A stretch of 64,000 nt of DNA from Arcanobacterium wilhelmae (lineage in GTDB: Bacteria; Actinomycetota; Actinomycetes; Actinomycetales; Actinomycetaceae), in contig NZ_CP121247.1 of assembly GCF_029632765.1 (NCBI RefSeq), forward strand, positions 1,860,001 through 1,924,000. The letters are read 5' to 3'. The position numbers and the translations under genes were made by a program. The notes beneath the pieces were generated by a model that worked only from the letters and a program-made list of their open reading frames with translations, searched no databases and was not told where the DNA came from. This document shows, piece by piece, positions 15,211 to 58,725 of the stretch (within the stretch, counting starts at the first letter, position 1; each line of letters begins with the position of its first letter).

Positions 15211-15222
15211 CGACGCCGGTGC
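15211..15222 (+). repeat. Dispersed 12-mer CGACGCCGGTGC (intergenic copy)
   Basis: This is one of at least 16 exact copies in the window, here in the P-type ATPase/lipoprotein intergenic region and not paired into a hairpin. Confidence 0.85.
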
Positions 15223-15342
15223 GCGGACCGCAACGACACAGGTGCGCGAGAAGCGACCGACCGCGCAACGTGCGCACCAACGTCGGGAACAGGCAGGCCC
15301 CACCGCGCCTTGCCGTCGATTACGCCACAAATCCCCAGCTAT

Positions 15343-15373
15343 TTGCGAGTGAAATTCATTGCATCGGTAGAAT
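15343..15373 (+). promoter_or_regulatory. Promoter of small lipoprotein gene
   Basis: TTGCGA (15343-15348) and TAGAAT (15368-15373) are separated by 19 bases and lie 43 bases before the ATG at 15417. Confidence 0.5.
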
Positions 15374-15416
15374 TTTTGCGGCACAAGTCCAACTACTGAA
15401 AAGAAGTGTTCACAAA

Positions 15417-15911
15417 ATGAAGAAGATTTTTGCAGCGGCAGCCGTGTCGCTCCTCGCACTCGCAGGCTGCTCTGCCACCCCGACGTCGTCGTCGAGCTCC
15501 GCAGCCGCCACCGACGAGGCCGTCAAGCTCGACGGCACCTACAACTCGGTCGAAGAGCTCCACAAGGCCGTCGTCGACGCCGGCTACACATGCGACGCCT
15601 ACTCCGACAAGATGAAGAGCAAAGACGAGGCTGGCAAGGAAACCGAAGCCGAGATCGGCTACAACAAGGCCACCTGCAACGGCATGGACATCCTTACTGT
15701 GACCGCGAACCGCGGCGGAAACACCGCCGACATCCACATCGCCGAAGCCGACACCCCCAAGGGCGAGAAGATGTACTTCCTCGTCGGCGACAACTGGAAC
15801 GTCAAGGGCGAGAAGGCCGATCTTGAAAAGATCGCAGAGAAGATGAAGGGCGAAGTCCAGGAAGTGACCGGCACCTCCGTTCCGGATCCGTCGGCCGCAC
15901 CGGCCAAGTGA
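15417..15911 (+). CDS. Small secreted lipoprotein of unknown function
   Basis: This 164-residue protein begins MKKIFAAAAVSLLALAGC, a lipoprotein signal peptide with lipobox LAGC, then a Ser/Ala linker. The mature domain has cysteines in YTCDAYS and ATCNGMD that may form a disulfide. Part of it resembles small actinobacterial lipoproteins of unknown role. The upstream ribosome site is weak (GAAAAGAAG). A promoter (TTGCGA/TAGAAT) and a strong terminator bracket it, so it is a single-gene unit. No function is assigned. Confidence 0.88.
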   Translation: MKKIFAAAAVSLLALAGCSATPTSSSSSAAATDEAVKLDGTYNSVEELHKAVVDAGYTCDAYSDKMKSKDEAGKETEAEIGYNKATCNGMDILTVTANRGGNTADIHIAEADTPKGEKMYFLVGDNWNVKGEKADLEKIAEKMKGEVQEVTGTSVPDPSAAPAK

Positions 15912-15948
15912 TTCTATTCACCGGGTAGCTCACCCGAGTTTGAATACC

Positions 15949-15988
15949 AAGAGGTGGAAGCAGGCATCCTGCTTCCACCTCTTATTCG
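15949..15988 (+). terminator. Rho-independent terminator after lipoprotein gene
   Basis: AAGAGGTGGAAGCAGG and CCTGCTTCCACCTCTT form a perfect 16-bp stem with a CAT loop. Confidence 0.93.
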
Positions 15989-16023
15989 TTGGTACGCGCT
16001 TGGTTAAGCGCGGCCCTAAAAGC

Positions 16024-16066
16024 GATTTCCCCGGTATCCACTTTTTGGCGGAATACCGGGGAAATC
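16024..16066 (-). terminator. Terminator of tRNA-Ser(CGA)
   Basis: Arms 16024-16037 and 16053-16066 (GATTTCCCCGGTAT and complement) form a 14-bp stem. The minus strand continues GCTTTT. Confidence 0.85.
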
Positions 16067-16072
16067 TGGTGG

Positions 16073-16160
16073 CGGTGACGGTGGGATTTGAACCCACGGT
16101 ACGGGGTTACCGTACACAGCATTTCGAGTGCTGCACCTTCGGCCGCTCGGACACGTCACC
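16073..16160 (-). tRNA. tRNA-Ser(CGA)
   Basis: The minus strand folds into a class II tRNA with acceptor GGTGACG/CGTCACC, a long variable arm and T-loop GGGTTCAAATCCC. The anticodon loop CTCGAAA gives anticodon CGA (reads UCG). CCA is encoded (TGG on the plus strand at 16070-16072). A promoter (TTGCCT at 16199-16194, TACTAT at 16176-16171, 17-base spacer) lies just upstream and a terminator just downstream. Confidence 0.95.
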
Positions 16161-16170
16161 TCGGCAACCA

Positions 16171-16199: not shown

Positions 16200-16233
16200 A
16201 ATATGCTCCTGTTACCCACGCCACGTCCAACAA

Positions 16234-16698: not shown

Positions 16699-16730
16699 CG
16701 TATTGAAGGGCTCTCCCCCTGCGCACGCGG

Positions 16731-17397: not shown

Positions 17398-17436
17398 CGA
17401 CGCCGGTGCGCATCTCGCGTACCGGCGTCGCTTTGT
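17398..17436 (+). terminator. Terminator after upp made of inverted dispersed-motif copies
   Basis: CGACGCCGGT (17398-17407) and ACCGGCGTCG (17421-17430) pair perfectly and are followed by CTTTGTG. The left arm is part of an exact copy of the dispersed 12-mer. Confidence 0.8.
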
Positions 17437-17611: not shown

Positions 17612-17623
17612 GCACCGGCGTCG
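17612..17623 (-). repeat. Dispersed 12-mer (reverse copy, intergenic)
   Basis: GCACCGGCGTCG, the reverse complement of CGACGCCGGTGC, lies in the leader of the DUF5926 gene. Confidence 0.85.
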
Positions 17624-18534: not shown

Positions 18535-18551
18535 TTTTTGGGAGTTTTCCG

Positions 18552-18590
18552 CCGACGCCGGTGCGCTTTTTGCGTGCCGGCGTCGGTTTG
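18552..18590 (+). terminator. Terminator after DUF5926 gene made of inverted dispersed-motif copies
   Basis: CCGACGCCGG (18552-18561) and CCGGCGTCGG (18577-18586) pair perfectly around a T-rich loop and are followed by TTTG. Confidence 0.8.
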
Positions 18591-23124: not shown

Positions 23125-23136
23125 CGACGCCGGTGC
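23125..23136 (+). repeat. Dispersed 12-mer (intergenic copy before serS)
   Basis: This is an exact CGACGCCGGTGC in the DagK/serS divergent intergenic region. Confidence 0.85.
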
Positions 23137-24494: not shown

Positions 24495-25435
24495 TGGGCG
24501 GCCGCCGGGAACCGGTGGGGCCGCTCCCCACCACGCCGTGGCGCGAGGCGCTGGAGGCGGCGGGGCTGCCGAAGGCAGGCCCGCCGCTGATGGTTGCGCT
24601 CGATATTGATGGCACGATCATCCACCACGACACCACGCTCTCACCGCGCGTTGCTCAGGCGATCCGCGCGCATCTGGACGCCGGCACCCACATTATGGTG
24701 GCCACCGGCCGTTCGATTGGTGCTGCAGACATCGTGATGGAGCCGCTCGGCATGGACCGCGGGTTTGCGGTGCTTTCCAACGGTTCTGTGGTGACGGCGG
24801 TGGGCGACGACGCCGGTGCACTGGGCGGGCTGGACGTCTCGGGCCTCGAGCCGGTTCCGGCGCAGTACCGCCTGGCGAGCACGCCGATGCATTTTTGGCG
24901 CACTCACACGTTTGATGCGTCGAAGGAGATGCGTCTGATTTCCCAGAACGTGCCGGGCGCGATCATCGCGTTAGAAACTGTGGGCGGCCCGATCCGCCTC
25001 ACGGAAGAGTTCCCCGACGGCGAGCTTGCGGGGGTCACGCAGGTTACGTCAATCGAGGATCTGCTTGCGAATCCGATCACGAGCCGGCTCACGGTGCGCG
25101 TTCCGCAGATGAGCGCGGGCGAGTTGCTCGATCGCGTTGAAAAGCTGGGGATTTCCGGCGTTGAGTATGCGGTGGGCTGGTCGGCGTGGATGGACATTAC
25201 GCCTGCGGGGGTCTCGAAGGCCTCCGGCTTGGAGGACGTACGCAAGGCGCTTGGCATTCCGCGTGCTCACACGCTCACGATGGGCGATTCGGGCAACGAC
25301 TGCGAGATGCTCGAGTGGGGTGGCCTCGGCGTCGCGATGGGGAATTCCTCGGATTACGTGCGTTCGCATGCGAACACTGTGGGCGAGTCGGTTGACGACG
25401 ACGGCGTCGCTCTGGTTCTCGAGCAGCTCCTGTAG
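24494..25435 (+). CDS. HAD-superfamily hydrolase (Cof/SupH type)
   Basis: This 313-residue phosphatase has motif I DIDGT at residue 37 (nucleophile and acid aspartates), motif II ATGRS near 74, and motif IV GDSGNDCEML near 260, with a Cof-type IIB cap between. Such enzymes dephosphorylate sugar phosphates, flavin or pyridoxal phosphates. Its GTG start overlaps the serS TAG by one base, so it is translationally coupled to serS. The substrate is unknown. Confidence 0.9.
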   Translation: MGGRREPVGPLPTTPWREALEAAGLPKAGPPLMVALDIDGTIIHHDTTLSPRVAQAIRAHLDAGTHIMVATGRSIGAADIVMEPLGMDRGFAVLSNGSVVTAVGDDAGALGGLDVSGLEPVPAQYRLASTPMHFWRTHTFDASKEMRLISQNVPGAIIALETVGGPIRLTEEFPDGELAGVTQVTSIEDLLANPITSRLTVRVPQMSAGELLDRVEKLGISGVEYAVGWSAWMDITPAGVSKASGLEDVRKALGIPRAHTLTMGDSGNDCEMLEWGGLGVAMGNSSDYVRSHANTVGESVDDDGVALVLEQLL

Positions 25436-25445
25436 CCTTCGGCGC

Positions 25446-25464
25446 AACTCGCGCCCCGACGTCG
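25446..25464 (+). repeat. 19-base dispersed repeat, solitary copy
   Basis: AACTCGCGCCCCGACGTCG here is identical to the direct repeats at 58729-58747 and 61887-61905 that flank the restriction-modification cassette. No inverted repeat or cassette is attached at this copy. Confidence 0.8.
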
Positions 25465-28349: not shown

Positions 28350-29312
28350 ATGGGGAACGAAACGTACGCACCGGCGTCGGGAAAGCACTTGGCGCCACCA
28401 GCCCAGCCCACGGCGTCGCCCGCGCAGCCGACGCCGACCGCGCCAGCCCAGCCCGCGAAAAAGCCGTCGCTCGGGTACCGGATCCAGCGGGCGCTATCGC
28501 ACTCGGTGGTAAACGTGATTTTGCTGCTCGTGGGCGCGATGTGGCTACTGCCTACGGTTGGCCTGTTCTTCCAGTCCGTGCGCTCGCCGCAGGATAACGC
28601 GCAAACAGGCTGGTGGAACATTTTCGCCAAGCCTGCGCAGTTCACGTGGGAGAACTATCAGTCGATCCTTGGCTCGCAGTCGATGGTGCAGTCGCTGATC
28701 AACACGGTTCTGATCGTGGTGCCGTCCACTCTGCTCGTGGTGTTGCTCGGCGCGATGGCCGGATACGCGCTGGCGTGGATCGAGTTCCCGGGCCGCACGG
28801 CCGTGCTCGTGATGATCGTGGCGCTGATGGCGGTGCCGTTGCAGGTGGCGTTCATTCCGCTCGCGCAACTGTTCGGCGCGATCGGGATTTTCGGCACGCG
28901 CCTGGCGGTGATCTTGTTCCATACGGCGTTCGGGTTGCCGTTCGCGATCTTCCTGATGCGCAACTATTTCCGGGCGATTTCCGAGGAGACGTTCGAGGCG
29001 GCACGGCTCGACGGCGCCTCCGAGTGGCGTATTTTCTTCCAGATCGCGTTGCCGCTGGGTATGCCGGCGTTGGCGTCGCTGACGATCTTCCAGTTCCTGT
29101 GGTCCTGGAACGATATGCTCGTGGCGCTGATTTTTGCTGGTCCGAACGACAAGCCGATCACCGTGGCGCTCGCCGAGCAGTTGCGCCTATTCTCGGCGAA
29201 TATTGATCTGCTCGCAGCAGGCGCATTCATCTCGATGGTGATCCCGCTTGTGGTCTTTTTCGCGGGCCAGAAGTACTTCGTTTCGGCTCTCCTGCAGGGC
29301 TCGACGAAGTAG
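28350..29312 (+). CDS. Sugar ABC permease (MalG/AglG type)
   Basis: This 320-residue permease has a Pro/Ala-rich cytoplasmic N-terminus (about 1-45) and six helices. The EAA loop EAARLDGASEWRIFFQIALP near 215 is typical of MalG-family subunits. It begins one base after the first permease. No ATPase gene follows; a shared MsiK/MalK-type ATPase encoded elsewhere must energise the importer. Confidence 0.92.
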   Translation: MGNETYAPASGKHLAPPAQPTASPAQPTPTAPAQPAKKPSLGYRIQRALSHSVVNVILLLVGAMWLLPTVGLFFQSVRSPQDNAQTGWWNIFAKPAQFTWENYQSILGSQSMVQSLINTVLIVVPSTLLVVLLGAMAGYALAWIEFPGRTAVLVMIVALMAVPLQVAFIPLAQLFGAIGIFGTRLAVILFHTAFGLPFAIFLMRNYFRAISEETFEAARLDGASEWRIFFQIALPLGMPALASLTIFQFLWSWNDMLVALIFAGPNDKPITVALAEQLRLFSANIDLLAAGAFISMVIPLVVFFAGQKYFVSALLQGSTK

Positions 29313-29396: not shown

Positions 29397-29408
29397 GCAC
29401 CGGCGTCG
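29397..29408 (-). repeat. Dispersed 12-mer (reverse copy) before tRNA-Ser(TGA)
   Basis: An exact GCACCGGCGTCG ends 6 bases before the tRNA 5' end. Confidence 0.85.
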
Positions 29409-34926: not shown

Positions 34927-34981
34927 CCCGACGCCGGGGCCCGCCTTGCACTCGAACGCAAGGCGGGCCCCGACGTCGGCG
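34927..34981. terminator. Bidirectional terminator between metS and Fic gene, built from the dispersed motif
   Basis: Arms 34929-34949 and 34958-34978 pair over about 21 bases; both ends carry CGACGYCGG. Confidence 0.88.
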
Positions 34982-35830: not shown

Positions 35831-37165
35831 CTACACCACGCGCTCGAGGAGCACGATCGTTTCAAAATGCGGGGTGTGCGGGAACATGTCCAGCACCTGC
35901 GCTTTCGCCACGCGGTACGACGGCATCGCAGCCAGATCCTTCGCAAGAGTATCGACATTGCAGCTCGAATACAGCACGCGCCCCACGCCCGAACCCTCGA
36001 GCCAGTTCGCGAGCTCGCCGATTCCGCGGCGCGGCGGGTTCACCACCACGGCTTCCGGCAGCGACGTCGGAGTTCCCGACGACGCCGACGCGCGATTTTC
36101 GTTGTTTCCACGGCTGCGTGCTGTGGGCGCGTTGGGCTCAGACTTCTCAGCGTTGGCCCTGCTCGCGGCACTAACCTCACGAACCCACGCACCGGCGTCG
36201 GCGGTAACGAAACGCACCGACTCGCTCATGCCGAGGGCGGCGGCGCCAGCCGCGCCGGACGCGACGGCTTCCTCGGAGGTCTCTACCCCAATGCCGTTAA
36301 ACGGCGTGCCCGCGCGCTTCGCGGCCGCCGCGAGAGCGAGCAAAAATCCGCCCACGCCGCAGTACAGATCCCAGGCGCTCTCCACGCCGCTGAGCCATTG
36401 CACGGCGCGAGTATAGAGCGCTTCAGCGATGTCGGTGTTCGTTTGGAAGAAGGACCGCGGACGAAGTGCCAGCTCAACAGGGTGTTCGGCCCATTGCTCA
36501 CCCACCCACAACCGCATCGGCAGTGTGCCGTTTTCGGAGATGAGGATTTCTTCGGCGCCTTCGATGATCGCTTTGCGCTCGGGTTGCACGTTGAGCGAGA
36601 GCACGGTCATGTTCGGCAGGGCGGCTTCGAGCTCGGCGCGGAGCTTGAACAGGATGCCTTGCACTCCGCGGCGGCGCGCCACGAAACGCACCATGAGCTC
36701 TCCGGTGGGCGCCTCTTCGAGGATCACGTATTTGAGGGCGCCCGTGTCCGACGCCGGCGAATACGGTTCCAGCCCGGCGCGCGTAATGAACGCGCGGATC
36801 GGCTCGATCGCGGTGCGGATCCCCGCCGATGGTAGCGGGCAATCCGCGAGGTCAACACCAGTGCCGTCCGGCCCGAGGATGCCGAGCTTCGGCAAGCGGG
36901 CCGAACCCGTCACCACAAGTTTGACCTTGTTTCGGAACGCTTCCTTGGCGCTCGCCACTGGTTCGAGCCATTCGGCGGCGTCGATGAGCGTGCGGGCGCG
37001 CGCATCCTTCGCTTGGAGTTGCGCGCCGAGCGGCTGTTCGATCCACGAACACGAGCGACACAGGCCGTCGCGATAGTAGGCGCAATCCAGGAGCTGAAGG
37101 CGAGTAAGCTCGTCGGTTGGCACGGCCGCGCGGCGGATCGGCCCGCGGGTCAGATCAGTTCGCAC
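35831..37165 (-). CDS. rlmC: 23S rRNA (uracil-5-)-methyltransferase RlmC-like
   Basis: This protein of about 444 residues is of the RumA/RumB (COG2265) family. Iron-sulfur cysteines are C28, C36 and C39 in LDCAYYRDGLCRSCSWI, with a fourth near 109 (DLADC). The SAM-binding DLYCGVGGFLLALA, the catalytic VVNPPRRGIG and the nucleophile YSSCNVDTLAKDL are all visible. The short N-terminus before the Fe-S motif fits RlmC, which methylates U747 of 23S rRNA. A Ser/Asn/Arg-rich insertion lies before VVNPP. The start is GTG 37165, with GAAGG 8 bases upstream, overlapping the HAD gene end by 11 bases. A copy of the dispersed 12-mer covers this start. Confidence 0.9.
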   Translation of the reverse strand: MRTDLTRGPIRRAAVPTDELTRLQLLDCAYYRDGLCRSCSWIEQPLGAQLQAKDARARTLIDAAEWLEPVASAKEAFRNKVKLVVTGSARLPKLGILGPDGTGVDLADCPLPSAGIRTAIEPIRAFITRAGLEPYSPASDTGALKYVILEEAPTGELMVRFVARRRGVQGILFKLRAELEAALPNMTVLSLNVQPERKAIIEGAEEILISENGTLPMRLWVGEQWAEHPVELALRPRSFFQTNTDIAEALYTRAVQWLSGVESAWDLYCGVGGFLLALAAAAKRAGTPFNGIGVETSEEAVASGAAGAAALGMSESVRFVTADAGAWVREVSAASRANAEKSEPNAPTARSRGNNENRASASSGTPTSLPEAVVVNPPRRGIGELANWLEGSGVGRVLYSSCNVDTLAKDLAAMPSYRVAKAQVLDMFPHTPHFETIVLLERVV

Positions 37166-37802
37166 CGGCGTCGCCTTCAGGCAACGAGCCGTCTGCAAGG
37201 AACGCCTCGAGCACTGGCTTTGCGTCCTCGATACCCACGAAGTGGTGCGCGTTGAAGCCGGCCGCGCGGGCCGCCTCGACGTTCTCCACAGTGTCGTCGA
37301 AGAAGAGCACGTTGCTCGGCTCCTCGCCCAGCAGCTCGGCCGCGATCGCGAACGCCTCCTTGCGCGGCTTGGCCGCACCGATCACCGCGGAGAAAATGCG
37401 CGGACGGAACTTCAGCAGCCACGGCTGATCCTCCCACAGCATGTTCAGCGTTGCCATCGGCACGTTCGACAGCAGGCCAACCTCCAGCCCGCGCTCCGTG
37501 AGCTCATCCAGCCACGCAACCATTTCCGGATCCGGGCGGTTCCACGTCTCGTAATCGGCGCGCGTAAAGCCATCAATATCCGGGAACGCCATCCCCAGAT
37601 CCGTGCCCATCACCTCGAGATACTCGGGGAAACCCCACTTGTTCGCGTCGAGCGGCTCGCGAAGCTCGCGGTACTTCGCGCGGAACTGCTCCGGCGTAAC
37701 CCCGTACTTCTCGATCTCCACGTACTCCTCGAGGGCAACCTTCTGCTCCTCCGACTGCACCTGCATGAACAGGCCCCACAGGTCAAACAAAATCTTTCGC
37801 AT
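37155..37802 (-). CDS. HAD-superfamily hydrolase (YihX-like)
   Basis: This 215-residue protein has motif I FDLWGLF at the start (single aspartate visible, Trp where the second Asp usually lies), motif II LLSNVPMATL near 112, a lysine in GAAKPRKEAF and motif IV FFDDTVENVEAA near 170. Replacement of the second motif I Asp is common in the FDLGGV-type group. It overlaps rlmC and is likely co-transcribed. The substrate is unknown. Confidence 0.87.
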   Translation of the reverse strand: MRKILFDLWGLFMQVQSEEQKVALEEYVEIEKYGVTPEQFRAKYRELREPLDANKWGFPEYLEVMGTDLGMAFPDIDGFTRADYETWNRPDPEMVAWLDELTERGLEVGLLSNVPMATLNMLWEDQPWLLKFRPRIFSAVIGAAKPRKEAFAIAAELLGEEPSNVLFFDDTVENVEAARAAGFNAHHFVGIEDAKPVLEAFLADGSLPEGDAGAN

Positions 37803-37839: not shown

Positions 37840-37951
37840 CCGTTCCGCTCGCCGGGGAAGGCTGGCCGCACGGCGGGCAGGAGCCGGAGGAAGGTGGCGG
37901 CGGAAAGCCGGGCGACGTCGGGGCGCGGCTGACGCACCGGCGTCGGCGTTA
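37840..37951 (+). repeat. Left copy of GC-rich repeat flanking toxin-antitoxin remnant
   Basis: Exact blocks at 37854-37867 (14 bases) and 37902-37924 (23 bases), and the block ending with the 12-mer at 37934-37945, recur in the same order and orientation at 38663-38676, 38717-38739 and 38783-38794. The spacing differs, so the copies have diverged by indels. Confidence 0.75.
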
Positions 37952-38649: not shown

Positions 38650-38801
38650 GATTCCGTTCGCAGGGGAAGGCTGGCCAGGCGGCGGGGGCAACGGGCGACG
38701 TCGGCACGGCAAGGCTGGAAAGCCGGGCGACGTCGGGGCACGGCTGGCGCCTCGCACAACCGGACAGGGAACGCGGGCCGGCGCACCGGCGTCGGCGCTA
38801 C
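38650..38801 (+). repeat. Right copy of GC-rich repeat flanking toxin-antitoxin remnant
   Basis: This copy is longer than the left one; it contains an extra duplicated GGGCGACGTCGG block near 38692 and the 12-mer at 38783-38794. Confidence 0.75.
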
Positions 38802-41031: not shown

Positions 41032-43599
41032 CTACTTGCGGGGTTTGGCGCGCCGGGTGGGTTGCGCTTCGAGCGGGTTTTCGGGCCAGGGGTGGCGCGG
41101 GTAGCGCCCGCGCATTTCGGCCCGCACCTGCGCGTATGGCCCGGCCCAGAACGAGGCCAAGTCCGATGTGACGGCGAGCGGCCGTCCCGCCGGCGAGAGC
41201 AGTTCGAGGGTAACGGGAACCGCCGCCTGCCCACCGACTCGCGGCGCGGTGGTCCACCCGAAGGCTTCCTGCAGTTTCATGCGCACGGTAGGGCGGCCGG
41301 TTTCGTACGAAACCCGGGCGCCCCCGAGGGGCGTTGCGATACGTTCGGGCGCGAGCTCGTCAAACTGGGCGGCCTCGGGCCAGGGCAACAGGTTGCGGAG
41401 CCCAGCGGCGACGTCGGGGCGCGCAGCGCCCACATCCAGCCAGTTCTCGAGGCTCGCGGCGAGCGCCTCGTCCGAGACGTCCGGCCATGGTTCCCCGAGC
41501 ACCTCGTGGAGGAAGGCAAGCCGGGCGCGCAGCACACGCGCGTCCCCGCTCCAGGGGAGTTCGCCGACGCCGGTGCGCCGGATGTGGGCCAGCCGCGCCT
41601 CGCGCATGATCTCCGGGGAAGCGGGGACACTGCGACGCTCGAGCTCGATCGTGCCAAGAGATCGCACTTCCCACGCACGCACTTTTCCACCGTCGGTTGC
41701 GGTTTCGAGGCGTGTTTCGATCATGGGCGCGCCAGCAGCCAGCGCAAGTTCCGCACTGATGGGAGCGGCGGAATCGATGATGGCGTCGGCGCGGCCCTGG
41801 CCGCGGCGGAGTGCACCGATCGCCAGCCATTCCTCACCCGCAAGCGGTGAAGGTGTAGGGAGAATGGCTCCAGTTCCGCCAGCGGCCACAAAGCCCGCGC
41901 CGCGAGCGCGCGCAATCCACCGCGGGTTCGCGAGCGCGAGGACTCCGGCGACGCGCTCGTCCGCGTCCGCCCGAGAATCTGAGCCGTACCCGTTGCCGTG
42001 TGACGAACCGGAGACCTGGGCGGGGTGGTACGCCAAATTTTGGCGTAGTGCACCCGCCACAACCCCACCACGTTCGACCATGCGCAGTAGCCGTTCAACT
42101 TCGCGCTCAAATTCGCCTGCATTCACACCTGCGACGCGGGCGCCCTTGCCCGCGCGTCCGAGCGCGGCAAGGGCTGCGGGGAGATCGGCGCCCTCCGGGC
42201 GCACCCCGAGGCTGAGGGCGGCGGCGGTCCGCGCCGCCGCCCTCCCGCCGAACATCGAGGCACCATCGATGAGTGCGCGAGCAATCGCAGGCGAGGCCGG
42301 CACCTGCGCAAACGCGCGGCCACGTTCAGTTGCGTGCCCCTCCTCGTCCACGGCTCCGAGCGCCCGAAGCGTGGCGAGCGCCGCCGCAAGATTCGCCTCC
42401 GGAGGCTGATCCATCAGCGCCAGTCCCTCAAACCCTGGCGCGCCCCAGCATGCGGCCATCAACGCTGCACCCGAAACATCGGCGATCGCGATCTCCGGTT
42501 GGGCGAAACTTTCGGCGGTGGCGAACGGCAGACACCGATATGCCACGCCCGGCCCGAGCCGCCCGGCACGGCCCGCACGCTGAATCATCGCGGCACGATC
42601 CGCATGGACGGTCACGAGCCCACCGATCCCGCTCGCCGCATCGAACCTCGGCTCGCGTGAGAGCCCACTATCGACCACCACACGCACGCCCGGAACAGTG
42701 AGCGCAGACTCCGCGATCGACGTCGCCACGATCACGCATGCCTCGCCACCGGCCAGTACCCGATCCTGTTCGCGTGCATCGAGCCCACCGTGTAGCTCGT
42801 ACACGGGTAGCTCGCCGCTGGGCCCAACCGCAGGTACCGACCGCAGCATCCCCGCGATCTCGGCCACCTCGCGCACCCCTGGCGCAAACACCAGGATCGA
42901 CACTCCTTCGGCGTCGTCATTCGCAAACTCAGCTGCCGCTTCACGAACGACCCCGGCAACGTGTGCCAAAAATTCGCGTTCCACCACGATCGCGCCGCTG
43001 CGCGTGGCGCCGAGCGCCCGCGGCCCCACGCGTTCTTCCATGCGCACCTCGTGCACAGCGCCGGGAACTTCCACGAGTTCACCGCCCACAAGCTCGGCAA
43101 CGCGCTGCGCGTTCAGGGTGGCGGACATGATCACCACGCGCAGATCCTCGCGGAAAACCTCCTGCGAATCCAGCACAAAAGCGCACGCGAGATCAGTATC
43201 GAGATCACGTTCGTGGAATTCGTCGATCACCACTGCCCCCACGCCCTCGAGGGAAGGATCGTCCATGAGGAGGCGCAACATGACGCCCGGGGTCACGAAT
43301 TCAACACGGCTTCCCGCCCGCGTCTCCCCGCGCACGCGAAAGCCGACGCTCTCACCCACGTGTTCCCCCGCGAGCGCAGCCACACGCCGTGCGCTGGCAC
43401 GCGCCACGATCCGGCGCGGGGAAACAACAAGCACCCGCCCGGCAACCATCGCGCTCAGCAGCGGCGGCACCAGCGTGGTTTTACCGGATCCGGGCGGCGC
43501 ACTCACCACGAAGTTGCGCACGGTGGCACGCATCCGCGCCAGCCCCTCCACAACGGGCAGCGACGGCGGGTTGGCAATGAGTTTTTCGAGCGAGTTCAC
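41032..43599 (-). CDS. hrpB: ATP-dependent helicase HrpB
   Basis: This protein of about 855 residues is a DEAH/RHA-type helicase. Motif I is APPGSGKTTLVP near residue 35, motif II DEFHER near 127, motif III SATLNAQ near 159, and motif VI MIQRAGRAGRLGPG near 355. A long C-terminal HrpB domain ends in WPENPLEAQPTRRAKPRK, similar to the usual HrpB terminus. The start is GTG 43599, overlapping the TGA of the TetR gene (GTGA). The biological role of bacterial HrpB is poorly defined; RNA-dependent ATPase activity is expected. Confidence 0.93.
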   Translation of the reverse strand: MNSLEKLIANPPSLPVVEGLARMRATVRNFVVSAPPGSGKTTLVPPLLSAMVAGRVLVVSPRRIVARASARRVAALAGEHVGESVGFRVRGETRAGSRVEFVTPGVMLRLLMDDPSLEGVGAVVIDEFHERDLDTDLACAFVLDSQEVFREDLRVVIMSATLNAQRVAELVGGELVEVPGAVHEVRMEERVGPRALGATRSGAIVVEREFLAHVAGVVREAAAEFANDDAEGVSILVFAPGVREVAEIAGMLRSVPAVGPSGELPVYELHGGLDAREQDRVLAGGEACVIVATSIAESALTVPGVRVVVDSGLSREPRFDAASGIGGLVTVHADRAAMIQRAGRAGRLGPGVAYRCLPFATAESFAQPEIAIADVSGAALMAACWGAPGFEGLALMDQPPEANLAAALATLRALGAVDEEGHATERGRAFAQVPASPAIARALIDGASMFGGRAAARTAAALSLGVRPEGADLPAALAALGRAGKGARVAGVNAGEFEREVERLLRMVERGGVVAGALRQNLAYHPAQVSGSSHGNGYGSDSRADADERVAGVLALANPRWIARARGAGFVAAGGTGAILPTPSPLAGEEWLAIGALRRGQGRADAIIDSAAPISAELALAAGAPMIETRLETATDGGKVRAWEVRSLGTIELERRSVPASPEIMREARLAHIRRTGVGELPWSGDARVLRARLAFLHEVLGEPWPDVSDEALAASLENWLDVGAARPDVAAGLRNLLPWPEAAQFDELAPERIATPLGGARVSYETGRPTVRMKLQEAFGWTTAPRVGGQAAVPVTLELLSPAGRPLAVTSDLASFWAGPYAQVRAEMRGRYPRHPWPENPLEAQPTRRAKPRK

Positions 43600-44379: not shown

Positions 44380-44415
44380 CGACGCCGGTGCGTGATTCAC
44401 GCTCGACGCCGGTAC
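44380..44415 (+). repeat. Tandem pair of dispersed 12-mers
   Basis: An exact CGACGCCGGTGC (44380-44391) is followed by a one-mismatch copy, CGACGCCGGTAC (44404-44415), in the same orientation, in the gap between the TetR gene and the envelope operon. Confidence 0.8.
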
Positions 44416-45216: not shown

Positions 45217-46653
45217 TCATTTCCCCTCACCGGCGACGCAGAGCGACGCCGGTGAGGATTCTTGCCCGCTGGGCGCGAGCGCTGTCACTTCCACACAGGT
45301 TGCGGCCTGCATAGCTGCGACGGTGGCCGTTTTCTCTTTGACCGTTTGCAGTTTTCCTTCGCCTTGCGGTTTGACGAGGAACGAGTAGCCCGCCTCCGGG
45401 TATTCCCATGTGAAGGTGACGTGCGTTCCATTCAGTTTACCTTGGAGGTTAGCGACGGGCACAACGTGGGTTGCAATTGGGTCTGCCCCTGTTGTGTACG
45501 TTTGGCTCGGCTGGGGTTCTACTGTACCCCCTCCGCGGGTAGAGAAAGCAATACCCGCGACGACCGACACAATGGCGAGCGATCCTGCGACGGCGGCGCT
45601 CACGCGGCGCCTGAGTTTGCGGTCTTTTGCTGTGAGCGGGCGATGCGTGGCCCGCGGCGAGGGGCGCGTGTCATGTTCGCCGGCGCGCGTAGGAACGGGC
45701 ACAGTTTCGGGGCCGAAGTCGATTCGGTGGACGGCGGCGCGAGTGGCGTCGGCGTCGACGTCGGTGCTGCGGTTCGTGGTGACGGCGGACTGCGCGTAGC
45801 TGGGCACCTCGATCGGGGTGGGGACTTCGCCGAGCTTTTCTTGGATCGCGCCGAGCGCGTAGGCAAGTTCGAGCGCGGAGCCGAAGCGCGAGGCAGGGTC
45901 TTTCGCCATCGCGGTGGCAAGCGCGCGGGAAAGCTCGGGTGGGACGTCGCTACCGAGCGACGGTACAGGCGCACTGAGCACGCGCTTCATCGTGGCGACT
46001 TCGGAATTATCTCCACCGACGAGCGTGAACGGCGCATGCCCGACGAGCGCCGTATAGATCGTCGCCGCGAGGGAGTACACATCGCCTGCCACTCCGACGT
46101 CGCCTTCGCCGAGCGCCTGTTCCGGCGGCGCCCACGGCACGGAGAAGCCGACGGCGGGCGTGGCGGGCTCGTCGAGGACGTGGGCGATACCAAAATCGGT
46201 GAGTACAGGCGTGCCGTACGAGGTGAAGAGAATGTTCGCGGGCTTAATGTCGCGATGGACGACGCCGGCGCGGTGCATCGCTTCGACCGCTGCGGCGAGC
46301 TGGATCCCGAGTTCGAGCGCTTTGGCGAGTGAGAGTGGCTTGTCGGCGACGATCTCTGCCAGCGACGGCGGCGGGCAGTATTCCATCATCATGTACAGGC
46401 GCCCGTCGTGGGTTTCGCCAGCCCCGAACACGTTCGCGATATTTGGGTGGCCGGAGACTCGCGCCTGAATATCTGCTTCGCGGCGGAATGCGGCTTTGCG
46501 TTCCGGTTCGAGCCCGCGTTGGGTCACTTTGATGGCGACGCGACGCCGGGGCGTGGTCTGCTCGTAGAGGTAAACGTCGGCGAATCCGCCCGATGCCACG
46601 TACTCGAGGTAGGTTGCGCCTGGAATGATGGGCGCGGTTGCTGGCTTCCTCAT
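45217..46653 (-). CDS. Membrane Ser/Thr protein kinase
   Basis: This 478-residue kinase has the nucleotide loop VASGGFADVYLY near residue 16, catalytic loop VVHRDIKPANILF near 131 and LTDFGIAH near 156. A proline-rich juxtamembrane linker follows, then one helix (about 350-370, VAGSLAIVSVVAGIAF). The extracellular tail of about 100 residues has two cysteines and resembles an Ig/FN3-like domain (TFTWEYPEAGYSFLVKP), not PASTA repeats. It overlaps the upstream FHA gene by 4 bases. It is opposed by the PP2C phosphatase in the same operon. Confidence 0.92.
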   Translation of the reverse strand: MRKPATAPIIPGATYLEYVASGGFADVYLYEQTTPRRRVAIKVTQRGLEPERKAAFRREADIQARVSGHPNIANVFGAGETHDGRLYMMMEYCPPPSLAEIVADKPLSLAKALELGIQLAAAVEAMHRAGVVHRDIKPANILFTSYGTPVLTDFGIAHVLDEPATPAVGFSVPWAPPEQALGEGDVGVAGDVYSLAATIYTALVGHAPFTLVGGDNSEVATMKRVLSAPVPSLGSDVPPELSRALATAMAKDPASRFGSALELAYALGAIQEKLGEVPTPIEVPSYAQSAVTTNRSTDVDADATRAAVHRIDFGPETVPVPTRAGEHDTRPSPRATHRPLTAKDRKLRRRVSAAVAGSLAIVSVVAGIAFSTRGGGTVEPQPSQTYTTGADPIATHVVPVANLQGKLNGTHVTFTWEYPEAGYSFLVKPQGEGKLQTVKEKTATVAAMQAATCVEVTALAPSGQESSPASLCVAGEGK

Positions 46654-47681
46654 TGGATTCTCACCTCGATTCGTACGCCGTCACCGAGGTCGAGGACGTC
46701 GCCGTCAAGCAGGCGCGTAGCGGTTGTGGTGGAAACGCGGGCAGGCTGCTCGCCTGGGCGCAACAGGTAAGTTCCGTTTCCGCTTTCAAGATCGATCACG
46801 CGCATCGCCCAGCCGGTGACGATCACGGCGGCGTGTGTGCGCGAGACCTGCTTATTTGGACTAGTCACGGGCAGGAGCGTGGGATGCTGGCCAGCTTGCC
46901 GCACAGGATCACGCCCGATCACAATGTCACGATAGACGGGTACAGACGTGCCTGTGTTCGTGATGAGCCGCCCAAGCACGGGCGGGTCGATCCACTCAGT
47001 TTCTTCCCCAACGGTCGCGCCACAGATCCGGCAGTAGACGGACGTGGGCGAGTTGGGGTGGCCGAACTCGCAGCGCGCGGCGAGCACCTGCCCTTCGTGG
47101 GCCTTGTGCACCGAGTCTGCTTCCGCCGACGTCGGTGCGCGGCGGGCGCGGACAGGTTCTTCTTTCTTGGCCCGATACTCTTCGAATTCGTCAACAAGTT
47201 CCTCGGCCGCTTCCGGGTCGAGTGTCATCGCGAGGTTATCGGAGGTCGGCACATCGAAATCGACGCGAATCGTAGGAGTAAGCGTGAAATCAATATCGAT
47301 CGCACCGGCCGGCACCACGCCCGAATTCACAGGAAAAGCTCGCTGGGTTGGGGAGCCGAGCGTGAACGAGCCAACTGCCAGGCGATCCTCGGCCCACAAG
47401 GCCACGTGTCGCGAAGCGCGCACCACCTCACCGGCGTGCATCACCGTGATTCCGCCGCGCACTGCCACGCGCACGTCGTTTCCTTCGTGTACGACCAGCG
47501 CAAACGCGGGCATCACGGTGCTCGACCACCGGCGTCGGAGCAGATCCAACACACGGTTGAAACTCGCTCCGCCTGCAAGCGCGTGGTAAAACTCGGTCAC
47601 ATCCACGTCCGTCGCGATCAGCAATGCACCCGCCGGCGCAACCGCCGCCAAGTATCCTCCCTCATACCAGCGCGCCCGCAT
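46650..47681 (-). CDS. FHA-domain protein with zinc-ribbon-like motif
   Basis: This 343-residue protein has an N-terminal part (1-200) of unknown fold, a CEFGHPNSPTSVYCRICGAT segment near 215 that places cysteines as a zinc ribbon, and a C-terminal FHA domain (about 250-340). The FHA domain has VSRTHAAVIV and LESGNGTYLL, the phosphothreonine-binding residues. It should read phosphorylation by the adjacent kinase. It overlaps the PP2C stop by one base and the kinase start by 4 bases. Confidence 0.87.
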   Translation of the reverse strand: MRARWYEGGYLAAVAPAGALLIATDVDVTEFYHALAGGASFNRVLDLLRRRWSSTVMPAFALVVHEGNDVRVAVRGGITVMHAGEVVRASRHVALWAEDRLAVGSFTLGSPTQRAFPVNSGVVPAGAIDIDFTLTPTIRVDFDVPTSDNLAMTLDPEAAEELVDEFEEYRAKKEEPVRARRAPTSAEADSVHKAHEGQVLAARCEFGHPNSPTSVYCRICGATVGEETEWIDPPVLGRLITNTGTSVPVYRDIVIGRDPVRQAGQHPTLLPVTSPNKQVSRTHAAVIVTGWAMRVIDLESGNGTYLLRPGEQPARVSTTTATRLLDGDVLDLGDGVRIEVRIQ

Positions 47682-55700: not shown

Positions 55701-57241
55701 ATCCAATCGTCGAGCACCGACGCCGAAGCGCGACCACCGGAAGCCATGCGGGTCGCCGTGTTCACCACCTGGCGCGGAGGTAAGTTCTGCTCCGGAGGAT
55801 GAACCGTCAGCGAGACGGTGGCCTGCGCTTTCCCTCCGCGCCCGTCACTGACCTCATACGTGAAGTTCGTTGCACCACTCGCGTCTGCCGGCACCTCCAC
55901 CTGGAAGGCACGGCTGCCACGAATCGGCATCACACGGCCGAAACTCGGCTCCTTCTTCAGTGCCACCGACAGCACATCGCCGTCCGGATCTGAATCGTTG
56001 AGCAACACCGGCAGCGTGGCCACCTGGCCCGCGCGCACTCCGAACGCGTCCGGCTGTGCCTCTGGCGCCCGGTTCTCCTCCTGCTGCTTGGGATTCACGG
56101 CCTCGTTCGACGTCGAATTCGAGCGCTTCTGGGAACTCTCCGAGTTGTCTTTATCGGTTTCGGTGGTGTCCCAATCGTCGACGATCTGCATGTTTTCGTC
56201 TGGGAGCCACACGCGCCCCGTCGTCGTATCGTTGAGTACGATCGCTTCGCGGTTCGTGCGGAACACGGCTGCTTGCGAATCGCGCAGCGATTCCGCCGCC
56301 TTCGCCTGGTCGTCGTCCGCACCCGGGCAGTCGCGAACATACACGCCCGTTGCGCCCCACGCGCCGTACGCGCAGCCCCCGTGGAACACGGGGCGCGTTG
56401 GAACGCCCGGTTTCGCGGGCGTATCGTCCGCCGACGCCGATGTGGCGAGCACCGTTCCCGTGGCCACCTCGACCTTCAGTAGCGCACTATCGGAGGCAAC
56501 CAGCACAGTGTCCGAATCCGGGCCGGGCTGTTGGAGCGTGAGCTTCGAGCCACCAATACGCACCTCGCGCTTCCCGCCGTCCAGGTATACCGAGCCAGTG
56601 GTCTTATCGAGCACCACCGAATGCTCTCCAACAGCGCTCACTTGAAGATCGTGGTTGTAGCGCACTTCGCTGGGTAGCTGGTAGGTTTTCTCGCCTGCCA
56701 CCCACTTGCGGGTGATCGGGGACGCGCCGTGGAGCTCGCCGTCGGCGGTGATCACGACGTCGCCTTTGGGGAGGGCCGTGGCCGCAACTGTCGCCTCGCT
56801 CCCCAAGCTCGCTTGGGCGCCGAACGGCGCCTTCCACACGGTTCCCGACGTCGGGTTGTAGGCCGCGACCTGCCCGCCGCCGAGCATCGACACCGGCGCC
56901 TCGCCCAGCCCGCTCGACGCTTTGAACGTGGCCGACGCCGGATCCACCGCCGCCACCGAATTTGCCGCCAAATCCTGGAACAACACCTGATCGCCCTGCT
57001 GGGCCACGTCGAATGTTCCCGACGGCGTACGTAGCTGTGCGTCCAACGCCATCGACGGATAGTTCACGTGCCCCACCATCTGGTTGCGGGTGTTGGTAAC
57101 CCACACGCCAGAATCCGCCAAATCGACCTGCTGTGCGGGGATACCGCCATGCCAGATCGCGGCCACCGCCCAGGTAGCGAGAACAGCGCCACCCGCAACG
57201 AGTGACGCGATCTTCTTTCCAAGCTGGTTTTTACCAAGCAT
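52709..57241 (-). CDS. Giant membrane-anchored Ig-repeat protein with C-terminal FN3 domain
   Basis: This 1510-residue protein has an N-terminal anchor (about 10-32). Residues 40-360 form a repeat region resembling a beta-propeller. About nine or ten cadherin/Ig-like repeats (about 400-1400) follow, each with a variant of NDxDPDGD and ending FTYxVSDGRG-like. The C-terminus is an FN3-like domain starting VPDAPRQVVAQLNGNTATVS. Homologues head MoxR/DUF58 operons in many actinobacteria. It should span the cell wall. A Ser/Asn/Gln-rich linker lies near 365-395. The start follows a weak ribosome site. It is the first gene of an eight-gene minus-strand operon ending at 44480. Confidence 0.88.
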   Translation of the reverse strand: MLGKNQLGKKIASLVAGGAVLATWAVAAIWHGGIPAQQVDLADSGVWVTNTRNQMVGHVNYPSMALDAQLRTPSGTFDVAQQGDQVLFQDLAANSVAAVDPASATFKASSGLGEAPVSMLGGGQVAAYNPTSGTVWKAPFGAQASLGSEATVAATALPKGDVVITADGELHGASPITRKWVAGEKTYQLPSEVRYNHDLQVSAVGEHSVVLDKTTGSVYLDGGKREVRIGGSKLTLQQPGPDSDTVLVASDSALLKVEVATGTVLATSASADDTPAKPGVPTRPVFHGGCAYGAWGATGVYVRDCPGADDDQAKAAESLRDSQAAVFRTNREAIVLNDTTTGRVWLPDENMQIVDDWDTTETDKDNSESSQKRSNSTSNEAVNPKQQEENRAPEAQPDAFGVRAGQVATLPVLLNDSDPDGDVLSVALKKEPSFGRVMPIRGSRAFQVEVPADASGATNFTYEVSDGRGGKAQATVSLTVHPPEQNLPPRQVVNTATRMASGGRASASVLDDWIDPDGDPIYLASAGPAEKLTIMWSREGSVDLADDGHAPGTVSIPLGVSDGTLTGTGSLALEMLSGDNAPTANADAVQVAVGVPATFSPLENDADPNGDTLRVVSLGALPDGLVANLDPARGTLRVSAERPGTFYFTYSMTDGKSSATGKVRVDALDPQEAGAPVPEMDLAVLSEDSIVVDPLANDWDPTAGVLTLTGVNAPDGVRVQMMGQQFVRVSSDKPLTGPVRVEYTVSNGRQSAKGMIVVVPGDPRADEPPIALPDSLTVRAGDVGAVNVVANDISRLPLEVTAVEGLPADAGELFSGEHDVRVRAVKAGQYELSYTAADERGRRAKAKVALTVLDANDNAAPTPVDLVARTRAGSQVAIRVPLSGIDSDGDSVQLSRIVSNPTKGRATVNADGTITYAANGNAFGTDTFRYEVTDRRGKSATANVRVGVAPASDENQAPVAGADVVSVRPGARVEAPVLVNDVDPDLDPIALVNGGANSGKAGFTVKEIAGGRLAFTAPKEEGSYPVRYEIADARGGRATGVLTVNVSANAPKLAPRPQDDFPQITGTPTEITVEVLENDLDPDGAASQLTVASKDEGTRVDGSSLVITLQAQPRPVVYTVTDVDGLTGSAVVWVPGLVAEKPQVNEEATPRLVDGAVIVLRAGQSIDSNVNVYIDPDVTIDGQVSAGNGITASGTGASLTVRADAGYSGTTQVSVGVVSAAGKRATISIPVRVEAEGETNRPPVVGTATAQVVGGGNPVTLNLTSMANDPDSDNLTYRVEGVPAGVNAQLNGSTLRISAAEGASSGAIRVVVSDGTSTSSGSVNVTVLEQEKPRLGVGTASEQVRRGQSVTVDVNSLVSNPFPTAPTIVAANGGNGVRVSVRGTRLVITPIAVGQFQVKFTLRDATGDSARDVSSVVYVDSVDVPDAPRQVVAQLNGNTATVSFTPGGLGGSSLTSAVITDLNQGDSVECVPGQVCRMPARTPGSHQFQVILYNAIGASAPAVSRPLIIE

Positions 57242-57339
57242 GCGTGAAACCTGGATGAGTGTGCATAAAGTCTAATTTTAGCGGGCGGGTGGCCGAAGTT
57301 GAACTACGTGAGACCTGCTTAACGTGAGACAATAGGCGT

Positions 57340-58725
57340 ATGGATTTCATGGAATGGGCTCACCAGTTCGCGACGATGCACCCTTCCCTCGCCGGGGCGC
57401 TCGTGTCTTCACACGGCGAGTGGCTCGACGTGCTGTTATCGGACGGGCGCACGTTCCGCTTCCGCCCGGGCTCCATGATCAAAGCGGACGCGCCTCTCGA
57501 GGTGCGCCAGGCTCTCCTTTCGCGCCTGATCGATATTGGTATTTCGCAGGCGAAAGAGCCCCAGGTTTCCGAAGATTCTCTCGATCGCGGCGACAATCCC
57601 GACGACGCCGGTGCACCCGGGGCGCGTGGGCCGCACAGTCCTCCTGTGCTCGGCTTTGGCGGTGCACGCAACCATCCGGGGCACCCCGCAAACTTTTCCG
57701 GCGACGAAACAGACGCTTCGGCGTCGGCAGACGAGGACGAAATCACGCCCTCCACGCCGATCGTGCCGATCGTGCGAGCCGCGGACTATTTCATCAACCC
57801 GTCCACGCAAGCCGATCCTCTGGTGCACGTGCCGCTCACCGATTTCGTGGCTGTTGGGCTGGCCTATGATCTGCCGAACTCTATCCACCCCGTCTACTAT
57901 TCGGGTCTGTCGGATGACGATCGCCCCATCGGCGAGATTCTCGCCGAATCCGTGGTGACGCTTCGCCACCTCACCGGCTCGCTGCGCGGCACCGTGGAAA
58001 TCGCGATCACTGAGGTTGCGGGCGCGCAGGTGCTCGCGTTTATGGCGCCCATGAACTACGAAGTGTCGTGGTTTTCGGATTTGGACATGATGCAGGAGGT
58101 CGCCGATCGTCTCGCCTCAGAGCGCCCGGGAGACATCCCGCTCTTCGTGCCCGCTTCGCGCACCAAACTCTACATCGTGTTCGCGGACGATCCGCACCTT
58201 CACGAGTTCTTCCGGCTCTTGTTTGAGCAGCGCGAATCAGGTGACGCCGTCTACCCGCTACCGCACACCGTTGCGGCAGACGGCTGGCGCGAATGGGTGC
58301 CCTTCCCCGGCTCCGACGTCGCCAACGTGCTCGCTGACCTGCGTGGATACTTCCGCTCCCGCATCTATGCCGGCCAGGTGCGCGCGATGCGCGCCTGGGG
58401 TGAGCTCGGCGAACTCGTCGATTTTGACGTGCGCCGGTTGCGCGGCGGCAGCGCCGTGAGCGAAGCCGTGTGGGATGCGGGCACCGGCGTCGGGTCTATC
58501 CCCGAAACGGACTACATCACCTTCGCCCGCGAGCGCGGCCCGATGCCATGGGACGAAACGCCGGCCGTGCGAGTATCAGTGCCCGCGCACGTCGCCCGCG
58601 ACCTGTGGCCCGACGGCTTCCGACGCGTGGAGAACGTGTGGCCCCCACGCTGGGAAAAGATAGGCTTCCCCTCCGACGAGGTCCTCAAGGCGATGGCCGA
58701 AGCCGCCGGAAACAGCCCGTTCTAG
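57340..58725 (+). CDS. Conserved hypothetical protein
   Basis: This 461-residue soluble protein was not recognised. The N-terminal 75 residues (GALVSSHGEWLDVLLSDGRT) are followed by an acidic Asp/Ala/Pro-rich linker (75-145) and a folded C-terminal part with VPLTDFVAVGLAYDLPNSIH, a VEIAITEVAGAQVLAFMAP strand pair and WPPRWEKIGFPSDEVL at the end. No signal peptide or helices are present. The pattern resembles DUF1444-like proteins only weakly. It is divergent from the giant Ig protein. The start at ATG 57340 has no clear ribosome site; TTGAAC and TAACGT upstream may be its promoter. Confidence 0.75.
   Translation: MDFMEWAHQFATMHPSLAGALVSSHGEWLDVLLSDGRTFRFRPGSMIKADAPLEVRQALLSRLIDIGISQAKEPQVSEDSLDRGDNPDDAGAPGARGPHSPPVLGFGGARNHPGHPANFSGDETDASASADEDEITPSTPIVPIVRAADYFINPSTQADPLVHVPLTDFVAVGLAYDLPNSIHPVYYSGLSDDDRPIGEILAESVVTLRHLTGSLRGTVEIAITEVAGAQVLAFMAPMNYEVSWFSDLDMMQEVADRLASERPGDIPLFVPASRTKLYIVFADDPHLHEFFRLLFEQRESGDAVYPLPHTVAADGWREWVPFPGSDVANVLADLRGYFRSRIYAGQVRAMRAWGELGELVDFDVRRLRGGSAVSEAVWDAGTGVGSIPETDYITFARERGPMPWDETPAVRVSVPAHVARDLWPDGFRRVENVWPPRWEKIGFPSDEVLKAMAEAAGNSPF

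What the first reader, a model, noticed from the sequence alone, without database searches (positions are those of the whole stretch)
15211..58492. Highly over-represented dodecamer CGACGCCGGTGC (wider consensus CGACGYCGGKGCG) scattered through genes, spacers and terminators
I located exact copies, both strands, at 15211, 17398, 17612, 18553, 23125, 24808, 28368, 29397, 36189, 37162, 37934, 38783, 41565, 44380, 57603 and 58481. Many one-mismatch or CGACGTCGG variants occur too (for example 715, 21874, 25456, 26168, 29551, 34929, 39362, 47124, 54645, 63151). A random 12-mer of this composition should occur well under once in 64 kb. Copies appear as inverted pairs forming terminators (17398-17430, 18552-18586, 34929-34978), singly in spacers, and inside coding frames. 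This is how DNA uptake sequences behave in Neisseriaceae and Pasteurellaceae. I know of no such system described for this group. Alternatives are a repeat family, a chromosome-organisation site or a methylation target.
Basis: partly seen in the sequence, partly recalled or inferred. Interest (0 to 1): 0.78.

Follow-up and report, generated by a model that had tools for sequence, protein, structure and literature searches.

The report
Possible DNA self-recognition tag in Actinomycetaceae
A short DNA tag is scattered hundreds of times through this bacterium's chromosome, and a related genus carries its own version of it, a pattern so far known from the tags that two groups of Gram-negative bacteria use to pick out their own kind's DNA for uptake.

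Summary
All 16 exact 12-mers lie where stated (0.05 expected); the whole 2.02 Mb chromosome carries 221, the reversed pattern 5. The 12-mer is the core of a longer bipartite element, about YYSC-CGACGYCGGKGC-GC-N3-TT-GCGC, flanks loosely kept. It lies in spacers and in genes, sense and antisense, and is not explained by protein sequence or codon use (30 genic copies sampled, 1.2 expected). 16 of 26 alignable genic sites are in register with a sister species, in weakly conserved protein stretches. The genus is Arcanobacterium. A second genus of the family (g18) has its own dialect, ACGACGNCGCAGC: 194, 162 and 195 copies in 3 of 3 sampled genomes, 3 here. Both share CGACGNCG, the top gapped 7-mer in coding DNA of 16 of 16 family samples ranked, not in E. 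coli or a Rhodococcus plasmid. Best reading: DNA uptake sequences with dialects in a Gram-positive family; only Neisseriaceae and Pasteurellaceae are reported to have them (passage of PMC12616744). Uptake is untested; comEC does not discriminate; exact copies lean to the leading strand (134:87), unexplained.

The parts
15211..15222 (+). exact 12-mer core, intergenic
17398..17430 (+). exact core plus inverted partner, hairpin listed as terminator-like, intergenic
17612..17623 (-). exact core, intergenic
18551..18587 (+). exact core (18553-18564) plus inverted partner, strong hairpin; the core is kept in the sister species G001
23125..23136 (+). exact core, intergenic
24808..24819 (+). exact core inside a gene, sense; aligned without a gap in G001
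25442..25464 (-). full bipartite element (core CGACGTCGGGGC plus GC-N3-TTGCGC), intergenic
   Evidence: extension score 8 of 8
28368..28379 (-). exact core inside a gene, antisense
29397..29408 (-). exact core, intergenic, beside tRNA-Ser; the G001 alignment has gaps here
34928..34979 (.). two variant cores (34929-34940 +, 34967-34978 -) as an inverted pair, very stable hairpin, intergenic
36189..36200 (-). exact core inside a gene, sense; near gaps in the G001 alignment
37162..37173 (-). exact core, scored as inside the 3' end of a gene, sense
37913..37945 (.). variant core (+) and exact core (-), inverted pair, intergenic
38728..38739 (+). variant core CGACGTCGGGGC, intergenic
38783..38794 (-). 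exact core, intergenic
41409..41420 (+). variant core inside the HrpB-type helicase gene, antisense
41565..41576 (+). exact core inside the HrpB-type helicase gene, antisense; one mismatch and no gap in G001
44380..44391 (+). exact core, intergenic, with a variant core starting 24 bases further in the same orientation
45756..45767 (+). variant core CGACGTCGGTGC in a gene, antisense
46541..46552 (+). variant core CGACGCCGGGGC in a gene, antisense
47127..47138 (+). variant core CGACGTCGGTGC in a gene, antisense
57603..57614 (+). exact core in a gene, sense; one gap nearby in G001
58481..58492 (-). exact core in a gene, antisense; aligned without a gap in G001
58725..58747 (-). bipartite element (extension score 7 of 8), intergenic
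61883..61905 (-). bipartite element (extension score 7 of 8), intergenic
63156..63167 (+). variant core CGACGTCGGTGC, intergenic

Best explanation
The motif is a DNA uptake sequence. Inferred mechanism: a cell-surface protein of the competence machinery (a Tad/Flp pilus or pseudopilus part, or ComEA) binds the double-stranded element, about YYSC-CGACGYCGGKGC-GC-N3-TT-GCGC, on DNA released by kin; that DNA is pulled in through ComEA/ComEC; recombination then spreads the preferred sequence through the genome wherever constraint is weak. Shown: the element, its excess at the DNA level, its distribution, and two genus-level dialects around a shared CGACGNCG core. Partly shown: evolution in place. 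Inferred: that a receptor reads it, that it drives uptake, and which protein does so.
For: Genome-wide 221 exact copies against 5 reversed; 475 of CGACGYCGGKGC against 6; 209 of the bipartite 23-mer with up to 2 mismatches against 0. In about 400 kb of called genes, 30 exact copies against 1.2 under gene-wise synonymous shuffles and 2.7 when codon junctions are also kept; reversed control 1 against 1.3. 28 of 58 exact copies in the 464 kb sample are intergenic, where 14% of bases are. 32 of 92 genic cores carry 5 or more of the 8 extension bases, background 4.8%. Sampled spacer cores 30 leading, 30 lagging. 16 of 26 alignable genic sites have no gap within six residues in G001; local protein identity 0.53 against 0.76 at random positions. 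No CGACGYCGG in the one rRNA operon read, two CGACGNCG. A second dialect, seen in 80 kb of G025, was then found genome-wide in 3 of 3 g18 genomes: 194, 162, 195, reversed 10, 10, 11; G000 has 3. CGACGNCG ranks first in 16 of 16 samples from 7 genera and is in excess in most frames on both strands in Arcanobacterium, g18 and g2. A ComEA-like protein, ComEC and three T2SSE ATPases (TadA-type by my reading) are present.
Against: All 221 exact copies lie 134 leading to 87 lagging (P 0.002); gene orientation does not fully explain this, since sampled genic cores are about half antisense. Density falls from origin to terminus (Spearman -0.61, P 0.0006, 28 stretches), not a usual mark as far as I know; G025 shows no unevenness (174 of 194 sites binned, P 0.29). 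10 of 26 genic sites have a gap nearby in G001, against 153 of 2144 control positions, so insertion is not excluded for some. CGACGYCGGKGC also reaches 100-156 copies (reversed 8-25) in nine larger genomes of genera g3, g4, g9, g23 and g55; where I sampled two of them (G010, G016) genic exact copies match expectation, 1 against 1.5 each. Four other genera show little or no core excess in samples of about 20 kb, yet have ComEC. No receptor found; no transformation known to me in this genus.
Confidence: 0.6

Rival explanations
1. A binding site of a chromosome-organising or nucleoid-occlusion protein, dense near the origin and sparse at the terminus.
For: Density falls about three- to fourfold from origin to terminus; one exact copy between 1.0 and 1.1 Mb; exact copies lean to the leading strand, 134:87.
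Against: No unevenness along the G025 chromosome (its origin was not located); spacer cores 30:30; copies inside genes in both orientations; flanks that change from genus to genus around a fixed core. An origin gradient could also follow from gene dosage in donor DNA (inference).
Confidence: 0.15
2. A motif enriched by a DNA-modification or repair process, as has been supposed for the cyanobacterial HIP1 octamer (recalled): the enzyme's target gains copies without any uptake.
For: The shared core CGACGNCG is short, CpG-rich and enriched in coding and spacer DNA of Arcanobacterium.
Against: The full element is bipartite, non-palindromic and over 20 bases, longer than usual methyltransferase targets (recalled); dialects differ by flank; exact copies are denser in spacers and genic ones sit in weakly conserved stretches.
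Confidence: 0.1
3. A dispersed repeat family (REP/MITE-like) or terminator hairpins that spread by copying.
For: Inverted pairs and strong hairpins exist; three tandem 45-base copies; 10 of 26 genic sites lie near alignment gaps.
Against: No strong conservation beyond the element; 16 of 26 genic sites are aligned without gaps; two single elements tested do not fold better than shuffles.
Confidence: 0.08
4. A by-product of codon-pair preference or composition.
For: In four genomes of other families of the order the core shows a weak excess (360 against 285.5), mostly in the GAC-GNC frames, and ranks first in two of the four singly.
Against: Excess survives synonymous and junction-preserving shuffles, appears in most frames and both strands and is larger in spacers of Arcanobacterium, g18 and G009; in the four outsiders it is absent from spacers, 8 against 7.8. 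E. coli (11 against 9.5) and a Rhodococcus plasmid (83 against 82.8) show none.
Confidence: 0.05

Closest known systems
Uptake signal sequence (USS) of Haemophilus influenzae and other Pasteurellaceae
   Same: Short non-palindromic core with weaker flanking parts; genic and intergenic; said to evolve by point mutation, to be under-represented in rRNA genes and constrained coding DNA, and to have lineage variants within the family (PMC7811141, first part of the Introduction read)
   Different: Unrelated sequence; Gram-positive host; fewer copies; uptake and receptor not shown here
DNA uptake sequence (DUS) dialects of Neisseriaceae
   Same: Fixed core with clade-specific flanks; inverted pairs associated with terminators (PMC3630211, abstract and passages)
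   Different: Unrelated sequence; the functional core there is 3 bases (CTG), here a shared CGACGNCG; no receptor such as ComP identified here
Flp/Tad-pilus-dependent natural transformation of Micrococcus luteus
   Same: Actinomycetota; comEA/comEC locus and two tad clusters tied to transformation (PMC4322843, passages); G000 has a ComEA-like protein, ComEC and three T2SSE ATPases
   Different: The term 'uptake sequence' does not occur in the main text held of that paper
HIP1 of cyanobacteria (recalled)
   Same: Highly iterated short motif in genes and spacers
   Different: HIP1 is a palindromic octamer; this element is bipartite, non-palindromic and has dialects

Membership tests
DNA uptake sequences (DUS/USS) | Short motif over-represented across the whole genome | tested here: met
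   221 exact copies against 5 reversed; 475 against 6 for the degenerate core
DNA uptake sequences (DUS/USS) | Excess acts on double-stranded DNA: both strands, genes and spacers, not codon-driven | tested here: met
DNA uptake sequences (DUS/USS) | No orientation relative to replication | tested here: inconclusive
   Sampled spacer cores 30:30; sampled genic cores 52:36 (P 0.11); all 221 exact copies 134:87 (P 0.002); origin and terminus placed by GC skew
DNA uptake sequences (DUS/USS) | Evolves by point mutation, not insertion | tested here: inconclusive
   16 of 26 alignable genic sites without a gap in G001, 10 of 26 near gaps; control 153 of 2144
DNA uptake sequences (DUS/USS) | Rare in rRNA genes and constrained coding DNA | tested here: met
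   0 CGACGYCGG in one rRNA operon; local identity at genic sites 0.53 against 0.76
DNA uptake sequences (DUS/USS) | Rare in newly acquired DNA | not tested
   Only an anecdote: the stretch with a surface-polysaccharide-type cluster (L041) has the lowest CGACGYCGG density after the rRNA stretch; by the 12-base core L046 and L048 are lower
DNA uptake sequences (DUS/USS) | Dialects in related lineages around a shared core | tested here: met
DNA uptake sequences (DUS/USS) | Inverted pairs used as terminators | tested here: inconclusive
   21 '+-' pairs of cores within 80 bases among 128 intergenic cores, overlapping pairs and palindromes counted twice; hairpins strong, T-tracts weak
DNA uptake sequences (DUS/USS) | Competence genes present | tested here: met
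   ComEC, ComEA-like protein, T2SSE ATPases; not discriminating, ComEC in 19 of 19 distinct family genomes. DprA not searched
DNA uptake sequences (DUS/USS) | DNA with the motif is preferentially taken up | not testable with these tools
   needs an uptake experiment
Chi / KOPS-type polar recombination or segregation sites | Strong co-orientation with replication | tested here: not met
   Spacer cores 30:30; all exact copies 61% leading, a weak lean
REP/MITE-type repeats | Conserved boundaries or flanks, inserted copies | tested here: not met
   No strong conservation beyond the element; 16 of 26 genic sites ungapped
HIP1-type iterated palindrome | Palindromic octamer | tested here: not met
   Full element non-palindromic and bipartite; the variant CGACGTCG alone is a palindrome

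The most novel reading that the evidence does not exclude
Much of the family Actinomycetaceae runs an uptake-sequence language: a CGACGNCG core with genus-specific flanks, read by a Tad/Flp-pilus competence machine. It would be the third such family, independent of the two proteobacterial ones, and the first in a Gram-positive bacterium.
Probability: 0.5. Interest if true: 0.92.

Novelty: new variant of a known kind. Interest (0 to 1): 0.8.

Why it matters
Self-specific DNA uptake has been reported in only two families, both Gram-negative (passage of PMC12616744). A third, independent case in Actinomycetota would show that such tags evolve repeatedly, help to predict who exchanges genes with whom in animal- and human-associated actinobacteria, and point to a new receptor, probably in a Tad/Flp pilus. 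The two dialects make a direct cross-preference test possible.

Tried and rejected
Codon bias: rejected by two kinds of synonymous shuffle and by frame counts. Generic Actinomycetota composition: four genomes of other families of the order (20 kb each) give 1.26-fold in all and none in spacers (8 against 7.8), though two of the four singly rank the core first (72 against 43.8, 136 against 90.2); E. coli rank 4300 of 15319 and Rhodococcus plasmid rank 6223 of 12308. Chi-like polarity: not seen in spacers; a weak lean over all exact copies stays unexplained. I first ascribed that lean to gene orientation and withdrew this on checking, because sampled genic cores are about half antisense; confidence lowered from 0.62 to 0.60 for it, and two rivals raised a little. 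Mobile repeat: no strong flank conservation. The 12-mer GTGCACAACTCA looked like a second motif but is part of a separate stem-loop repeat. ComEC as a discriminator: useless, present in all. EM fits on the small spacer samples of most relatives drifted to CRISPR-like repeats (G008) or noise; only G000, G001 and G025 gave usable fits. For the genera sampled I sought no dialect by fit; one 1.2-kb stretch (L181) was not analysed. Literature: the listings of ten searches showed no paper on uptake sequences in this family; the library lacks most subscription papers.

Rows dropped or partial: coding sequences with in-frame stops were dropped from shuffles; one search used every second G000 gene; 5 of 31 genic sites were not alignable, and only 123 of 514 G000 proteins had a hit in the G001 stretches held, some at 42-46% identity; sites near stretch ends were dropped, which also used 30 loci chosen because they hold an exact forward copy; positions of 14 of 221 exact copies were not listed, so the last bins are low by those 14 (the strand totals use all 221); 174 of 194 G025 sites were binned. 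Gene calls are from my own ORF scorer, not a standard annotator.
Full report
Observation. The window lies in a one-contig chromosome of 2,015,622 bases (G000, places 1860001-1924000), which holds 103 forward and 118 reverse copies; the reversed pattern has 5. So the enrichment is neither chance nor confined to the window.

Organism. G003, in the same genus as G000, has a contig of 342,535 bases, the length of an Arcanobacterium phocae contig found through a window protein, so the genus is Arcanobacterium. In sampled stretches G000 is 60.6% GC; five congeners are 50.0-54.5%.

The element. Motif refinement on intergenic sites gave 148 sites and a wider consensus: YYSC before the core, CGACGYCGGKGC, then GC, three free bases, TT and GCGC, the outer parts only loosely kept. 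The 23-mer CGACGYCGGKGCGCNNNTTNCGC with up to two mismatches occurs 209 times in G000, reversed 0; in the eight congeners 14, 6, 4, 3, 2, 1, 0 and 0, reversed 0 to 2. Genic cores carry the extension too: 32 of 92 have 5 or more of 8 extension bases against 4.8% of background positions; intergenic 39 of 64.

Not codon use. In 400 kb of called genes the exact core occurs 30 times, 1.2 expected with gene-wise synonymous shuffles (largest of 60: 4), while the reversed control is 1 against 1.3. Keeping codon junctions as well gives 2.7. In the 464 kb sample 28 of 58 exact copies are intergenic, where 14% of bases are.

Placement. Origin and terminus were placed by GC skew. Sampled intergenic degenerate cores are 30 leading and 30 lagging; genic 52 and 36 (P 0.11); 69% of gene bases are on the leading strand. 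Over all 221 exact copies the split is 134 to 87, P 0.002. Gene orientation cannot fully explain it, because sampled genic cores are about half antisense (43 sense, 49 antisense; exact copies 18 and 12); I leave it unexplained. Density falls from origin to terminus (28 stretches, Spearman -0.61, P 0.0006). The rRNA operon in L143 has no CGACGYCGG and two CGACGNCG. The next sparsest stretch by CGACGYCGG is L041, with glycosyltransferase and surface-polysaccharide-type genes (named by eye); by the 12-base core L046 and L048 are lower. Inverted pairs of cores occur; three in this window fold with z about -7, while two single elements tested do not fold better than shuffles.

Evolution. Against the sister species G001, 26 of 31 genic sites in genes with a hit could be aligned: 16 without a gap within six residues, 10 with one (control 153 of 2144); local protein identity 0.53 against 0.76. 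So a majority look as if they arose in place, in weakly conserved stretches; for the rest insertion cannot be excluded. A separate motif fit on G001 spacers, seeded only with CGACGNCG, came out as gcCGACG.CGgtgcgc, the same dialect in weaker form; genome-wide CGACGYCGGKGC 61 against 2 reversed.

A second dialect. In 80 kb of G025, another genus of the family (g18), spacer hits of CGACGNCG looked like ACGACGNCGCAGC. The pattern was then counted in 81 family genomes: G025 194, G076 162, G099 195, all three g18 genomes in that draw, with reversed 10, 10, 11; elsewhere at most 34; G000 3. The Arcanobacterium pattern in the same three: 9, 7, 11. That pattern also reaches 100-156 copies (reversed 8-25) in nine larger genomes of genera g3, g4, g9, g23 and g55. 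In the coding samples of two of these, G010 and G016, the exact 12-mer is at expectation (1 against 1.5 each), so I read those counts as composition; the others were not tested that way or only on small samples. In 200 kb of G025 the g18 pattern occurs 10 times in genes against 0.4 expected and 12 times in 29 kb of spacer; a control octamer in the same genes is 87 against 102.

The shared core. CGACGNCG is the most over-represented 5+N+2 gapped 7-mer in coding DNA of 16 of 16 family samples ranked, from 7 genera, and is in excess in most frames on both strands in Arcanobacterium, g18 and g2. Spacer excess is 6-9 fold in eight Arcanobacterium species (the ninth, G002: 1 against 0.7 in 6 kb), about 5 in G025 and 9 in G009, but about 2 in G010, G021, G016 and G011. 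Samples of about 20 kb from four other genera, not ranked, showed little or no coding excess (G031 3 against 5, G027 2 against 4, G029 20 against 20, G018 23 against 18). In four genomes from other families of the order the excess is 1.26-fold overall and absent in spacers. E. coli and a Rhodococcus plasmid show none.

Machinery. ComEC is in 19 of 19 distinct family genomes looked at, so it does not discriminate. A protein with SLBB and helix-hairpin-helix domains, as in ComEA, precedes comEC in G000. G000 has three strong T2SSE ATPases, each of the eight congeners two; TadA-type is my reading. The strongest in G000, at 1,985,151, lies in a Tad-like cluster near the origin. Flp-like pilins beside these ATPases were recognised by eye; Pfam gave no match.

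Interpretation. Uptake sequences of Haemophilus and Neisseria are described as genome-wide, mutating in place, sparse in rRNA and constrained genes, often in inverted pairs, and split into dialects (PMC7811141, first part of the Introduction read; PMC3630211, abstract and passages). Several of these marks are met here, some are inconclusive (membership table). [quoted passage not shown] Transformation in an actinobacterium, Micrococcus luteus, depends on two tad clusters and involves comEA/EC (PMC4322843, passages). I therefore take these as uptake sequences read by a Tad-type competence machine, with 0.60 confidence. The uptake step and the receptor are inference.

Noticed in passing
G000 stretches L033, L034, L047, L050 (13 copies in 464 kb): A separate intergenic repeat: GTGCACAACTCA, in most copies followed by ATCA and a GGCGTTGC...GCAACGCC stem-loop, MITE-like; two of the 13 overlap the 12-mer.
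   Followed up: partly
G000:C1:1980001-2000000 (L051, 808-8018): A Tad-like cluster near the origin (CpaB-, CpaE-, TadB-, TadC-like by eye; the ATPase by Pfam T2SSE). Its ATPase had the best T2SSE score of 11 genomes; G000 has three strong matches, each of eight congeners two.
   Followed up: partly
L076 and the comEC hits: ComEC open frames are 476-527 residues in 8 of 9 Arcanobacterium genomes (780 in G002); in ten genomes of other genera 738-1184 in eight and 520-525 in two, which suggests a missing domain in the short ones.
   Followed up: no
G004 (among L056-L059, L101-L103), G008 (among L068-L071, L110-L112), G005 (among L107-L109): One unit repeated many times in spacers (about 43, 60 and 12 copies), CRISPR-like.
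   Followed up: no
L049:619-720 (G000:C1:1700619-1700720): Three exact 12-mers at 45-base spacing in a tandem repeat.
   Followed up: no
L143:11406-16441: 16S-23S-5S rRNA operon about 0.95 Mb from the start of the record, near the terminus.
   Followed up: no
window 52709-57241: 1510-residue protein with eight scored bacterial Ig-like stretches, probably a surface protein.
   Followed up: no
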